This document shows, piece by piece, positions 49,864 through 61,321 of a stretch of DNA of 64,000 nt (position 1 is the stretch's first letter; every line of letters starts with the position of its first letter). The notes below the pieces were generated by a model, which ran no database searches, was not told where the DNA came from, and saw only the letters and a list, made by a program, of their open reading frames with translations. The stretch comes from Lasiodiplodia sp. COLG20. Lineage: Eukaryota > Ascomycota > Dothideomycetes > Botryosphaeriales > Botryosphaeriaceae. The stretch spans positions 2,728,001-2,792,000 of the forward strand of contig VNWV01000001.1 in NCBI GenBank assembly GCA_009801085.1, read 5' to 3'. Position numbers and translations under genes: made by a program.

Positions 49864-51516
49864 TCGACCGCGGAGTTACTGTGTACTGGGGGAATCGTGA
49901 GTTTCTTTGTTGGAGGAGGCGTCGCGACAGGCAGCGCAGTATAAAAGTTCGGCGGCGCCCCCACGCAGTGAATCAGCAAAAAGCTGGGGGATTACTCTGA
50001 AGCTCGTGGGTGGTGGCCGGCGGCGAGCCGGGGCTAAGCTGCAGGCTGCGCGCAGGGTGGGGCTCAGCGAATAGGAAGCCAGCTGTGCTGCATCTGCGTC
50101 TTGCGGCGGTGGGCGGTGCGGCGGGATGAGAGCTGTCCTATTGTCGTAACACCGCGTCCTCCAAGCGGATGACGTCGCAGCAGTGCAGTAGTCGGGAGCA
50201 AACAGAGCCAAAAAGAAAAAGTAGCTTGCTAGGCGCGTCGCAGACTTTTCTGCAGGGTGTTGCGCTCACTGGGCCCTGCGCGTGGCGGCGGCGCTCGAGG
50301 CTCTTTATTATTCCGAGTGCCGGCGATGTCCGGGACGCGCCCGTGGCACTACTAGGCGGGCACGCCGCAGCCATACGGAGCGCTGCCGTCCGCACACGGT
50401 GATGGCCTCGTGGCGTCGCTGGCTGGCTCGCCGCCTGGAGCAGTGACTTGAGCAGCGTCACTCTGCCTGCCTGGGCCACCGCGCGCAGATCCGACGTCAG
50501 GTCAGCTTCCACGTCCGGCTGGCGCACTCTGGTTCCGCGGCCCTGCAGCAGATCAGAAGCAAGGACTTTTGATGCTGCCCAAACAACCCAGCCCGCTGCG
50601 GGCCGCGCCACAGCAGGCAACCAAAGAAGTACCATTGCACCCTGCTTGACGCGGGTAGTCGAATCCAACGTCCGGACGTGCTCGTGTAAGGTTAAATCCC
50701 ACCTGTACGCCCGGACGCCTGCGTCAACTGCCCGCGCAGGAGCCCAAGGTCGCCTGCAACCTACTGTGGCGCCTCAGAGACGCGATATTGCAGCTAGATC
50801 CGCGCCGCGCTGACTTCACGCGCGCGCTGGAGACTCAGACCCTTCATGCAGTGGGGCGCATGCGCTGGCAGCATTGACAGCATTGGCGATGTCGTGAAGC
50901 ACAGCCCAGAAACATTGCGCAAAGGCGAGGCGGGCGATCTGCAGCAAACGGCGGCGCACAGCATCGTCTCAGAATTATTATAGCATGCCGGCCGTATGCT
51001 GGTGGGCGAGTTGGGCGGCAGCCGGGCATTCCCAACGCCCTCACGTGGGCCAGTTGGCATGGACGGGACGGCGGCGCGCGACGTCACGGCGATGGGGCGG
51101 CCAGCGCGACGGCTCCGCTTTGCGACAATCTGGGTGTTTTCTGGTCAAGCTTGGCCGGCGCGACGGGCGAGGAGCGCGGTTCTGGTGATAATTTCACAGC
51201 ACCCGCACGCCCCGGCGCGGCAGTCGTGGGCGCGTGCTGGCCCCGTGGTGCTCGCGGCAGCCGCGAAAGGAGTTTAGCCAGCCGCCAGAGCAGACCCTTG
51301 GCGGCCGTCGAGAGCTTGCCGGAGCCAGCCATCGATCGCAAACACGCTCAAGCCTCGCAGTATCTATCCATCGTCCAACCAACTCACCGCCCTCCGCCGC
51401 ATATACCCTTCGCCCGCCCGCGTCGCTCAGCACGCGGCCCATCGCCCGAGTCTGCCTCTGCCAACCGAGACACGATCCAAGCCAGCGTCATCGGCCTCAG
51501 AGGCCCCGACGACAAG
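49864..51516. promoter_or_regulatory. Divergent region, kinase/Vac8, carrying one 83-bp palindrome
   Basis: 1.65 kb, GC-rich, with overlapping chance frames on both strands (for example 50138-50668 minus and 50448-50813 plus). It must include the kinase and Vac8 promoters. The only structure I find is the diverged palindromic element at 50652-50734, listed separately. Confidence 0.5.
50652..50734. repeat. 83-bp palindromic element, copy 4 (diverged)
   Basis: Left arm CGGGTAGTCGAATCCAACG then TCCGGACGTG; right arm CGCCCGGACGCCTGCGTCAA then CTGCCCG. Same length and same spacing as copies 1-3, with a centre (TAAGGTTAAATCC) that aligns to their TAATTTTTAATTC. It is more GC-rich than the others. 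The dinucleotide CG flanks it on both sides. Confidence 0.7.
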
Positions 51517-53540
51517 ATGGGTCTATCGGGCTACTGCTCCAAGCTGTTCAGCTCCTGCTGCGGCGGTGCGTCCCCGCTGCTGCCCGCCGCAACCGTGCTT
51601 TGCCTCTGACCACTCTCCAGGCCGCTCCAAGGATGGGCTGTACGATCCTGTGCTCGCCGACAGCGAGCGGGAGGCCGTTGCCGACCTGCTTGGCTATCTC
51701 GAGAACGTGCGTCCGCCTCAACTCGCCGCCCGCCCGACGACACCTTGCTGACGAGCTTCTGCAGAGAGCCGAGACCGACTTCTTCTCCGGCGATCCTCTC
51801 CGCGCCTTGAGCACGCTGGTGTACTCTGACAACATCGACCTGCAGCGGAGCGCGAGCTTGACGTTCGCCGAGATAACAGAGCGAGGTGTGTAGTTGCGGT
51901 TTGCTCAACGTTATCCACGTATGCTAACTGCAGACCTCCTGCAAGCAGATGTCAGAGAGGTCGACCGCGACACGCTCGAGCCGATCCTCTTCCTCCTCCA
52001 GAACAGCGATATCGAGGTGCAGCGGGCGGCAAGTGCGGCATTAGGCAACCTCGCCGTCAACAGTACGTCGCCGTGGCTCCCACACTTTTCATATGCTGAC
52101 CGCTCGCAGCGGAGAACAAAGTTCGCATCGTCCAGCTCGGCGGCCTTGGTCCGCTCATCAAGCAGATGAACTCGCCGAACGTGGAGGTGCAGTGCAACGC
52201 TGTGGGTTGCATTACAAACTTGGCAACGCATGAGGAGAACAAGGCAAAGATTGCTCGATCCGGAGCTCTGCCTCCACTCACTAGACTTGCGAAGTCTAGG
52301 GACATGCGTGTTCAGCGGAACGCTACCGGCGCCCTTCTGAACATGACGCACTCCGGTATGAATCTGGCGGTGTCGCCTAATTTTAGACGAAATGGTATTA
52401 ACAGAGCAATAGATGACAACCGTCAACAACTGGTCAACGCGGGAGCGATACCCGTCCTCGTTCAACTGCTCTCTTCCCCCGACGTGGACGTCCAATACTA
52501 CTGCACAACGGCTCTTAGCAATATCGCTGTCGATGGGCAGAACCGGAAGAGGTTGGCGCAGACCGAAAGCCGTCTCGTACAATCGCTGGTACACCTTATG
52601 GACTCTTCGTCACCCAAGGTCCAGTGCCAGGCGGCTCTGGCGTTGCGGAACCTCGCGTCAGACGAGCGCTACCAGCTTGAGATCGTTCGGGCTCGCGGGC
52701 TGCCCTCCCTCCTTCGTCTGCTCCAGTCGTCATATCTCCCTCTTATCCTTTCCGCTGTCGCGTGTATCCGCAACATTTCGATCCACCCCTCTAACGAATC
52801 TCCTATCATCGATGCCGGATTCCTTGGGCCTTTGGTCGATCTTCTTGGTTCTACAGAGAACGAGGAAATCCAATGCCATGCCATCTCTACCCTTCGCAAC
52901 CTTGCAGCTAGCTCGGACCGCAACAAGCAACTGGTACTTGAGGCTGGTGCTGTGCAGAAGTGTAAGCAGCTGGTTCTGAATGTGCCATTGACTGTCCAGT
53001 CGGAAATGACTGCTGCCGTCGCTGTGCTTGCTTTGAGCGATGAGCTGAAGCCTCATCTCCTCAACCTTGGTGTCTTTGATGTGCTTATTCCCCTCACGGA
53101 GTCGGACAGTATTGAAGTTCAAGGTAACAGCGCTGCTGCTCTGGGCAACCTCTCGTCTAAAGGTATGTTTTCTCCCAAGCAAAGCGCAGATATTTAGCTG
53201 ACTGGCTTCAGTGGGCGATTACACCATCTTTTTGCAGAACTGGAATGAGCCCAACGGTGGCATTCACGGCTACCTTTCCAGATTCCTGGACAGCGGAGAC
53301 CCTACGTTCCAGCACATTGCGATTTGGACACTCCTGCAACTCCTTGAGTCTGACGACTCCAGGCTGCTCAACCTCATTGGCAAATCGAGCTCCATTGTCA
53401 CGATGGTCAAGAGCATCGCGGATCGTAACATCGAGTCGGACGATGAGGACAATGAAGACGGCGAGGGCGAGGTCGTCAGCCTGGCGCGACGATGCCTGGA
53501 GCTGCTCGGAAACACGCCTAAGACTCTGATGGAGGGATGA
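51517..53540 (+). CDS. VAC8: Vac8, vacuolar armadillo-repeat protein
   Basis: Vacuolar membrane scaffold for vacuole inheritance (with Vac17), nucleus-vacuole junctions (with Nvj1), Cvt/autophagy (with Atg13) and fusion. Seven exons (51517-51565, 51621-51706, 51765-51885, 51949-52062, 52110-52355, 52413-53162, 53212-53540) give 564 residues, the usual length. The N-terminus MGLSGYCSKLFSSCCG has Gly2 for myristoylation and Cys7, Cys14 and Cys15 for palmitoylation. About twelve ARM repeats follow (ALGNLAVNTENK, GCITNLATHEENKAKIARSG, LLNMTHSDDNRQQLVNAGAI, ALSNIAVDGQNRKRLAQTES, CIRNISIHPSNESPIIDAGF, TLRNLAASSDRNKQLVLEAG). An acidic loop (NIESDDEDNEDGEGE) near the end is conserved in the family. 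Confidence 0.97.
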
Positions 53541-54723
53541 GATTTCAAATCTCTTTGATTCCATCGCTGTCCCGTTGGTCGTAACGTGGGCACATTCTCC
53601 TCTTCCGTAAGGCTTCATTTAAAAAAAATACACTTCCGGCGCAGGCAGGCGTTTTTTTCCGGGCAAATCAACCGGGACGCAATTCAATTCTTCTGTTTTC
53701 CATTTTCATAGCGAGCATGGGCGGAGCAAGGATGTCATTTTCCTTTTCCTCTGTTGTCTCACTCTAGGGCGTGTTTTCATTATACCACATTGATGTGCAC
53801 GAATCAGTAAATCCTCTCTCTCCTTTTGTTTCTTTTATTGCGTTTTGCTTTGTTTGACTTTGGGCATCTGCAAGTTGGGGGTGCGGGCGGTTGTGGACGT
53901 AGAGATTGGGACTGTGTCTCTGAGATCGGGGGGAGAAGGATGTGGAGAATGAGCGTAGCTTGGCTTCTCTTCGTTCAGCTGATCAGTAGTTTTCTTTTAT
54001 TGGGGCAGTTCTGTTGTAATTGAGATGGGAGAAACAAGGATGTGAAGGGTGCTCGCGTGAGCTAAGTTGCGGTTGTGGGATGTAAAGCTCTTCAAGTAAT
54101 GACCTCAGCATAGACTTCTTTGAAATTGACGCGTTTGCTTTTGAATGCCCCGCCTTCTGATGTGCCACTGCTGGGATCACATACCGATGTCATTTCATGC
54201 TGTTAGTCTCCATTCCTGACGTGCAGTTATGCGGTGAACAAGTCGATATTCGGACCGCAGAGCCAATAGGAAAGACCTTCGGCCAATGAAGCACTGACAA
54301 GAAGGCATTTGGCGGGGTAAAAAAAATGCAAGATGGTGATAGGCCCAATTTTCATGAGATCGAGGCACCAGATGCCAGGGCCCCAAGACCAGATCCGACT
54401 AGGGGCAACGTGTACCGCTGTGATGCGCAGACCTGCGTCTTGCCACCTTAATCGCTTAATATTATGATAACATAAGCTTTTCGCTAGCCTGATGCCTCTC
54501 TAATTGCGACGGTCGACGTTCGTCATCTGGCCGGTTGCCGCTTTGGGCAGGGCTGGCTTATCGTGAGGCTTATCGCAGCTCAACCTTCAACACCACGCGA
54601 AAAGCTTCAGAGCCAACCTCGAGCGTCCTTGTACTTCTTCCGCACTGCTTGTCGCCGATGACTCATGAGCAATATCAATCAAGTTTAGGTTTTTCATAAT
54701 TTGCAGAGGTAGTTTTCACGACC
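53541..54723. other. Intergenic, no gene seen
   Basis: VAC8 3' UTR followed by AT-richer sequence up to the MFS gene. Only frames of about 60 codons. No repeat identified. Confidence 0.6.
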
Positions 54724-61222: not shown

Positions 61223-61238
61223 CAATACTCGACTTGTA

Positions 61239-61321
61239 TACGGCGTTGAAGCTATCGTCCGGACGTATATGTACACTTATTAATTCTACATTCACGTCCG
61301 GATAGCAGCTTCAAATACCCA
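61239..61321. repeat. 83-bp palindromic element, copy 3
   Basis: Left terminus is diverged (TACGGCG) but TTGAAGCTATCGTCCGGACG is intact. Right arm ACGTCCGGATAGCAGCTTCA then AATACCCA. The centre is ACTTATTAATTC. TA flanks it on both sides. Confidence 0.85.

What the first reader, a model, noticed from the sequence alone, without database searches (positions are those of the whole stretch)
50652..61321. Four copies of an 83-bp palindromic element family
Copies at 50652-50734, 58683-58765, 61007-61089 and 61239-61321 all have exactly 83 bp, near-complementary arms of about 27 bp, a self-complementary CGTCCGGACG-type core in each arm and an AT-rich centre. Copy 4 is strongly diverged yet keeps length and arm layout, so this is an old family rather than one local duplication. 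Three copies have matching dinucleotides on both sides (CA/CA, TA/TA, CG/CG), which could be 2-bp target duplications; copy 2 does not (TG/CA). No transposase is visible. It could be a MITE, a cruciform-forming regulatory element or a binding-site cassette. I know of no named family with this sequence.
Basis: seen in the sequence. Interest (0 to 1): 0.8.

Follow-up and report, generated by a model that had tools for sequence, protein, structure and literature searches.

The report
Fungal mini-transposon with flipping palindromic core
The 83-base palindromes are the hairpin-shaped middle of a roughly 235-base, non-coding mobile element present in hundreds of copies in a Lasiodiplodia-like fungal genome, and that middle has been turned around again and again so that both orientations are now about equally common, which makes the family a natural record of how DNA hairpins rearrange a genome.

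Summary
In detail: four 83-bp palindromes lie at the stated coordinates, far above chance. But 83 bp is not the element. In at least 49 of 82 fetched copies it is the core of a larger MITE of about 235 bp: TA, a B side (about 98 bp, including a terminal repeat of about 30 bp), the core, an A side (about 53 bp, likewise), TA. Window copy 3 is complete (60914-61142, flanked by TA); removing it with one TA restores a 20-bp tandem array. The host is a Botryosphaeriaceae fungus nearest Lasiodiplodia theobromae. There are 1595 arm matches genome-wide, so roughly 800 copies. No transposase with these ends was found. The 2-bp 'target duplications' at the core edge are not supported.

Unexpected: the slightly asymmetric core lies in both orientations relative to its flanks at about 1:1 (71:74 genome-wide by the B flank; 21:25 in fetched copies). 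Orientation changes at least 10 times on a flank tree of 35 copies; one pair with nearly identical flanks carries the same core exactly inverted. Three copies sit at the centre of 135-459 bp palindromes with perfectly mirrored flanks. I read this as repeated hairpin-driven inversion in place, most likely polymerase template switching. The MITE is a new member of a known kind; the flipping core is the new variant.

The parts
60912..61144 (.). Complete MITE (window copy 3) with its TA target duplications: TA 60912-60913, element 60914-61142 (229 bp), TA 61143-61144
   Evidence: Terminal inverted repeat arms 60912-60944 / 61112-61144, 91% complementary; both ends readable in 31 copies including this one; flanks joined restore a 20-bp tandem register
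60912..60944 (+). Left terminal inverted repeat with its TA, TACAGCCCCCTCTCGCAGCCGATGGCTAGCATG
   Evidence: 350 genome matches for the TACAGTCCCCTC... end
61112..61144 (-). Right terminal inverted repeat with its TA
60945..61006 (.). Inner part of the B side (long side)
   Evidence: Homologous flank in other copies
61007..61089 (.). 83-bp palindromic core, copy 3; core in the R orientation relative to its A flank
61090..61111 (.). Inner part of the A side (short side, A-rich)
58683..58765 (.). Core copy 2, well preserved; possible decayed A side to its left (GCTAGCG at 58661-58667)
   Evidence: the outer remnant is weak (20 of 31 at 58637, where other places in the window reach 19 to 22)
61239..61321 (.). 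Core copy 4, diverged; flanks of another type (TACAAGTCGAGTATTG / TAAATGTCGAATTT, read outward)
50652..50734 (.). Core copy 1, the most diverged, no recognisable MITE flanks
60893..61225 (+). 20-bp tandem array (CGTCCGGAYGATTGCTTTTA-like, 5 units related to the core arm) interrupted by the MITE of copy 3; an arm-like stretch at 60877 (20 of 27) precedes it

Best explanation
A high-copy, non-autonomous Tc1/mariner-like MITE (211-252 bp in 31 measured copies, TA target duplication, ends of about 30 bp beginning CAG) of a Lasiodiplodia-like fungus. Its core is an 83-bp near-perfect palindrome. Shown: the core lies in both orientations within the same flanks at about 1:1 and has inverted many times independently. 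Shown: three fetched copies are the exact centre of longer inverted duplications, and some copies lost the loop. Inferred: the core forms a hairpin or cruciform in the cell, and during replication or repair the polymerase switches to the complementary arm and back. A switch and return across the loop inverts the core; a late return copies the flank backwards and makes a longer palindrome; slippage between the CGTCCGGACG repeats deletes the loop. Movement of the element would need a Tc1/mariner transposase supplied in trans, now lost or not found.
For: MITE: 31 copies with both ends, 211-252 bp, TA on 28 of 31 left and 30 of 31 right sides, third base matching in only 4 of 31; end patterns 350 and 136 matches, reversed controls 0; restored 20-bp register at the window copy. 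Flipping: 21 F: 25 R in 46 copies with a strong A flank; genome-wide by the B flank 76 and 81 matches, 147 distinct places, by my hand-sorting of the two lists 71 F, 74 R, 2 ties (binomial p 0.87; here orientation rests on the three letters in which the patterns differ); by the A flank 121 and 111 raw matches, partly shared. Tree of flanks alone, 35 copies (21 R, 14 F): at least 10 orientation changes, 5 forced by well-supported branches, shuffled labels 11.2. L021 and L048: flank divergence 0.014, cores 17 differences directly, 0 after inversion. Cores of copies with close flanks agree in the better orientation (mean 1.5 differences in 6 pairs under 0.03 flank divergence, 2 of them opposite; 4.6 in 26 pairs at 0.03-0.06, 11 opposite; about 9 beyond 0.06), so the core is inverted in place rather than swapped. 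Different extents: inversion beyond position 8 in L048 and L003, inner loop alone in 5 copies. Extended palindromes, flanks 100% mirrored: L014 188 bp, L092 104 bp, L010 26 bp each side, 3 of the 82 copies. Loop deletions L075, L083. Precedent: spacer inversion and its reversal by template switching in yeast (PMC8604942, abstract, introduction and passages read).
Against: Arm homogenisation, the other mark of template switching, is weak: identical changes in both arms 18 against a shuffled mean of 6.8 (max 17 of 1000), but within-copy arm mismatch (2.5) is hardly below between-copy (2.8), and of 19 private variants none is in both arms. The two flips that can be placed reach beyond position 8, near the hairpin base, which would also fit cutting at a cruciform base. 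The yeast spacer inversions changed only 2-5 bp. No autonomous partner was found. The link of flank and core distances over all pairs is weak (Mantel r 0.18, 118 of 2000) and is clear only for close pairs. L037 is a well-preserved core (80 of 83) without recognisable MITE flanks. One genome only: no strain comparison, no reads.
Confidence: 0.72

Rival explanations
1. Same MITE, but the core inverts by cruciform extrusion with cutting and rejoining at the hairpin base (a structure-specific nuclease), not by polymerase template switching.
For: Inversions that carry the outer-arm marker at position 8 along (L048, L003); little arm homogenisation; strong predicted hairpin.
Against: Inner-loop-only inversions in 5 copies need other breakpoints, though 3 of the 5 (L073, L079, L081) share a rare letter and may be one event; mirrored flanks of 26-188 bp need copying.
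Confidence: 0.2
2. The 83-bp palindrome is an independent small mobile element that inserted into a second MITE.
For: 17 of 82 copies have an A-flank score under 18; several of them keep a B-type flank by eye (L011, L014, L026), but L037 is a well-preserved core (80 of 83) with neither flank, and copy 1 has none.
Against: All 30 loci found by the outer end hold the core or a deleted or degraded form of it; the nearest thing to an empty site, L065, still has six core letters; no duplication at the core edge.
Confidence: 0.08
3. Orientation was shuffled by gene conversion between dispersed copies, since a palindrome can pair with a donor either way round.
For: Hundreds of similar copies; weak overall link of flank and core distances.
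Against: Copies with near-identical flanks keep their own core letters after inversion: L021/L048 0 differences, L007/L003 1, L020/L003 2, against about 9 for distant copies.
Confidence: 0.1
4. A dedicated site-specific recombinase inverts the 83 bp, as in bacterial invertible promoters.
For: One exact whole-core inversion and a balance near 1:1.
Against: More than one inversion extent; inverted duplications. No recombinase gene was searched for.
Confidence: 0.04

Closest known systems
mimp (miniature impala) MITEs of Fusarium oxysporum and other Tc1/mariner MITEs of fungi
   Same: Size class, no coding capacity, ends of about 27-30 bp, transposase absent or broken (PMC3599309, passages: mimps 200-220 bp, ~27-bp TIRs, no intact Impala in that strain). 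TA target: tested here, recalled for mimps
   Different: End sequence differs after the first letters (CAGAGGGGTGCTGCAGCCG / CAGTCCCCTCTCGCAGCCG here; the mimp end is recalled, not from a call); long palindromic core; no impala-type element with these ends found
Spacer inversion by template switching between inverted-repeat arms (Saccharomyces cerevisiae genes, PMC8604942)
   Same: Loop between inverted arms inverts in place, repeatedly and reversibly
   Different: There 10 events changing 2-5 bp in genes; here cores of up to 83 bp, orientation scored at 147 places of one element family, near 1:1, with mirrored flanks in three copies
Small hairpin-loop inversions of chloroplast DNA
   Same: Inverted loops flanked by inverted repeats, recurrent (recalled; search listing only)
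   Different: Nuclear, in a mobile element, longer arms, hundreds of parallel copies
Fold-back inverted duplications at inverted repeats (PMC3907307, search listing only)
   Same: Inverted duplication grown from an inverted repeat (recalled for the mechanism)
   Different: Here 135-459 bp in all, centred on the MITE core

Membership tests
Tc1/mariner-type MITE | 2-bp TA target duplication | tested here: met
   TA at 28 of 31 left and 30 of 31 right ends; next base matches in 4 of 31
Tc1/mariner-type MITE | Terminal inverted repeats at the target duplication | tested here: met
   33-bp arms (with TA) 91% complementary in the window copy; 350 + 136 end matches, controls 0
Tc1/mariner-type MITE | Short, non-coding, high copy | tested here: met
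   211-252 bp in 31 copies, too short for a transposase; roughly 800 copies inferred from 1595 arm matches
Tc1/mariner-type MITE | Insertion shown by an empty site | tested here: met
   One case, inferred: the window copy interrupts a 20-bp tandem array and the joined flanks keep the register; no real empty allele seen
Tc1/mariner-type MITE | Autonomous partner with the same ends | tested here: inconclusive
   3 DDE_3 and 5 DDE_1 matches in the genome; the 3 DDE_3 and 2 of the 5 DDE_1 places examined, no matching ends; 3 DDE_1 places and other transposase families not examined
mimp / impala | Impala-type end sequence and an impala transposase | tested here: not met
   Ends differ beyond the first letters (mimp end recalled); no element with a DDE_3 transposase and these ends found
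Template switching between inverted-repeat arms | Inversion of the loop in place | tested here: met
Template switching between inverted-repeat arms | Homogenised arms | tested here: inconclusive
   18 against 6.8 expected by shuffling, but 0 of 19 private variants in both arms
Template switching between inverted-repeat arms | Dependence on replication direction or replication mutants | not testable with these tools
   needs experiment
Known RNA family | Rfam match over the copies | tested here: not met
   At gathering scores only U2 and one tRNA in the window, neither at the copies

The most novel reading that the evidence does not exclude
The 83-bp core is an invertible DNA cassette of a eukaryotic nuclear genome: it is extruded as a cruciform in vivo, cut at its base and rejoined either way round often enough to reach a 1:1 balance, and the family persists because hairpin formation helps its own amplification.
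Probability: 0.1. Interest if true: 0.8.

Novelty: new variant of a known kind. Interest (0 to 1): 0.5.

Why it matters
To my knowledge palindrome instability is mostly studied with one engineered repeat at a time. Here hundreds of similar 83-bp hairpins sit in one genome, many with an internal orientation marker and flanks that show kinship. That makes the frequency, breakpoints and outcomes of hairpin processing in a wild eukaryote (inversion, loop deletion, mirror duplication) countable from sequence alone, and from sister strains in calibrated time. It also warns that a MITE's palindromic core can be taken for the element, and that its orientation says little about ancestry.

Tried and rejected
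Taking the 83 bp as the transposon with a 2-bp duplication: rejected. Finding the autonomous element: DDE_3 and DDE_1 transposases searched; L093 has an open frame with 47-bp ends of another sequence, L092 and L094 are relics without the MITE's end patterns (up to 5 errors) around them, L096 has other ends and L095 none seen; three DDE_1 places were not looked at; left open. Relatives elsewhere: no exact 21-bp arm in IMG/VR or in the prokaryote genome collection; eukaryote DNA collections are not on hand, so nothing is known about related fungi. A structural RNA: no Rfam family there. Literature: the listings show no paper that names this family or a flipping MITE core in the open-access library; apart from PMC3599309 and PMC8604942 no paper was opened (PMC11051394 on Botryosphaeriaceae genomes was not), and subscription papers and repeat databases were not searched. 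Arm homogenisation as a main signature: not borne out. A long fixed-gap pattern to count A-core-A palindromes genome-wide could not be run, so only the fetched copies were tested for them. Rows dropped: the orientation counts use the 77 copies of exactly 83 bp; the tree uses 35 of the 82 copies (both flanks scoring 30 or more, core 83 bp, clear orientation, no identical flanks).
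Full report
What is there. The four 83-bp palindromes are confirmed. The window is part of a 43.5-Mb, 88-contig genome. Its CCCH protein at 59689-60693 is 96% identical to one of Lasiodiplodia theobromae, 90% to Diplodia intermedia and 75% to Neofusicoccum parvum, so the host is a Botryosphaeriaceae fungus. The arm occurs 1595 times genome-wide with up to 3 mismatches, against none for the reversed control; at two arms a copy that is roughly 800 copies.

The element is larger. 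Flanks of many copies match each other outward from the core for about 55 bp on one side (A) and about 80-115 bp on the other (B), and stop near TACAG...CTGTA. A strong A flank (score 35 or more) is present in 49 of 82 copies, a score of 18 or more in 65; 22 of the 82 lie in loci brought in by the outer end and so favour this. In 31 of 82 copies both ends could be read: length 211-252 bp without the TA, TA on 28 left and 30 right sides, no further duplication. Two end types, TACAGTCCCCTC... and TACAGAGGGGTG..., occur 350 and 136 times with no control matches. In the window, copy 3 is complete: TA, 229 bp, TA (60912-61144). It interrupts a 20-bp tandem array, and joining the flanks restores its register, a sign of insertion at TA. 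Copy 2 may keep a decayed end; copies 1 and 4 have no such flanks and may be older. All four lie between recognised genes: copy 1 between a protein kinase ORF (47875-49863) and an armadillo-repeat ORF (52166-53197), copy 2 just upstream of the CCCH gene, copies 3 and 4 between the CCCH gene and an OHCU decarboxylase ORF (61713-62255).

The letters beside the core are mostly TG, TA, CA or CG, and equal on both sides in 32 of 77 copies, because TG is the commonest pair on both sides.

The core flips. In the reference core, positions 28, 30, 35 and 41 differ between the arms. With every copy turned so that the A flank is on the right, the core runs one way in 21 and the other way in 25 of 46 copies with a strong A flank and 83 bp. 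Genome-wide, patterns joining the B flank to each core orientation give 76 and 81 matches; 10 places are in both lists, and sorting these by fewer mismatches, by hand, gives 71, 74 and 2 ties of 147. These patterns differ in three letters only. Patterns from the A flank give 121 and 111 raw matches (lists cut at 100, so shared places were not removed).

The flips are many and in place. A tree of 35 copies from flanks alone needs at least 10 changes of orientation, close to shuffled labels (11.2; 141 of 500 as low), 5 of them forced by well-supported branches; only 5 of 32 inner branches of this short alignment are well supported. L021 and L048 differ by 1.4% in the flanks; their cores differ at 17 of 83 sites as they stand and at none after inverting one. 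Pairs with flanks under 3% apart (6 pairs, 2 opposite) have cores 1.5 differences apart in the better orientation, pairs at 3-6% (26 pairs, 11 opposite) 4.6, and more distant pairs about 9, so a copy keeps its own core when it flips. Over all pairs the link is weak (Mantel r 0.18, 118 of 2000). A marker haplotype (position 8 G, position 19 A) sits on the A side in 7 copies and on the B side in 3, with the same half of the core to within one letter; in two of the three (L048, L003) the other arm lacks the G, so those inversions reach beyond position 8; L017 has the G on both arms. In 5 other copies only the inner loop is reversed against the outer markers; three of them share a rare letter and may be one event.

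Other traces of hairpin processing. Of the 82 copies, L014, L092 and L010 have flanks that mirror each other perfectly for 188, 104 and 26 bp; in L092 the mirror runs about 50 bp past the element's end. L075 and L083 have lost the loop. These fit a polymerase that copies the wrong arm, or slips, at a hairpin. Arm homogenisation is only weakly seen: 18 identical changes in both arms against 6.8 in shuffles, but no private change in both arms out of 19. That is against the simplest form of the model.

How it works, step by step. Shown: TA-flanked MITE; near 1:1 core orientation; repeated in-place inversion of differing extent; mirrored flanks. Inferred: hairpin or cruciform in vivo (strong predicted fold); template switching as the cause; transposase from a lost Tc1/mariner partner (3 DDE_3 and 5 DDE_1 matches in the genome, none of the five places examined with these ends).

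Known or new. Tc1/mariner MITEs of this size are well known in fungi, for instance mimps (PMC3599309, passages). Spacer inversion by template switching is known from yeast genes (PMC8604942, abstract, introduction and passages). The listings of my searches show no report of a MITE family whose core has reached orientation balance. Limits: one genome, no reads, no strains; 60 of 82 copies were chosen by similarity to the core or its arm; whether the assembly rests on long reads is not known, though contigs of up to 8.4 Mb suggest it.

Noticed in passing
window 60876-60912 and 61145-61225: Five 20-bp tandem units (CGTCCGGAYGATTGCTTTTA-like) related to the core arm, preceded by an arm-like stretch (20 of 27): perhaps an older core whose loop was expanded in tandem before the MITE of copy 3 landed in it.
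   Followed up: partly
L014 (1313-1771), L092 (2126-2416), L010 (1475-1609): Palindromes of 459, 291 and 135 bp centred on the core, with perfectly mirrored flanks; in L092 reaching past the element's end.
   Followed up: partly
L093 (518-1966): Apparently intact, unrelated Tc1/mariner-type element: open frame of about 430 aa with a DDE_3 match and identical 47-bp inverted ends.
   Followed up: partly
L092 (about 1000-2025): Relic of a DDE_3 transposase with stop codons, about 150 bp from a MITE copy that is the centre of a 291-bp palindrome.
   Followed up: partly
L037 (1445-1527): Well-preserved core (80 of 83) without recognisable MITE flanks; its left outer arm letters are changed.
   Followed up: no
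L040 (1328-1585 and 2225-2482): Two core copies whose surroundings are 258-bp inverted duplicates of each other, 99% identical.
   Followed up: no
window 18746-18937 and 25149-25255: U2 spliceosomal RNA gene and a tRNA gene on the + strand.
   Followed up: no
window 29711-29964: Four tandem copies of a 63-bp unit, the others 65-78% identical to the first.
   Followed up: no
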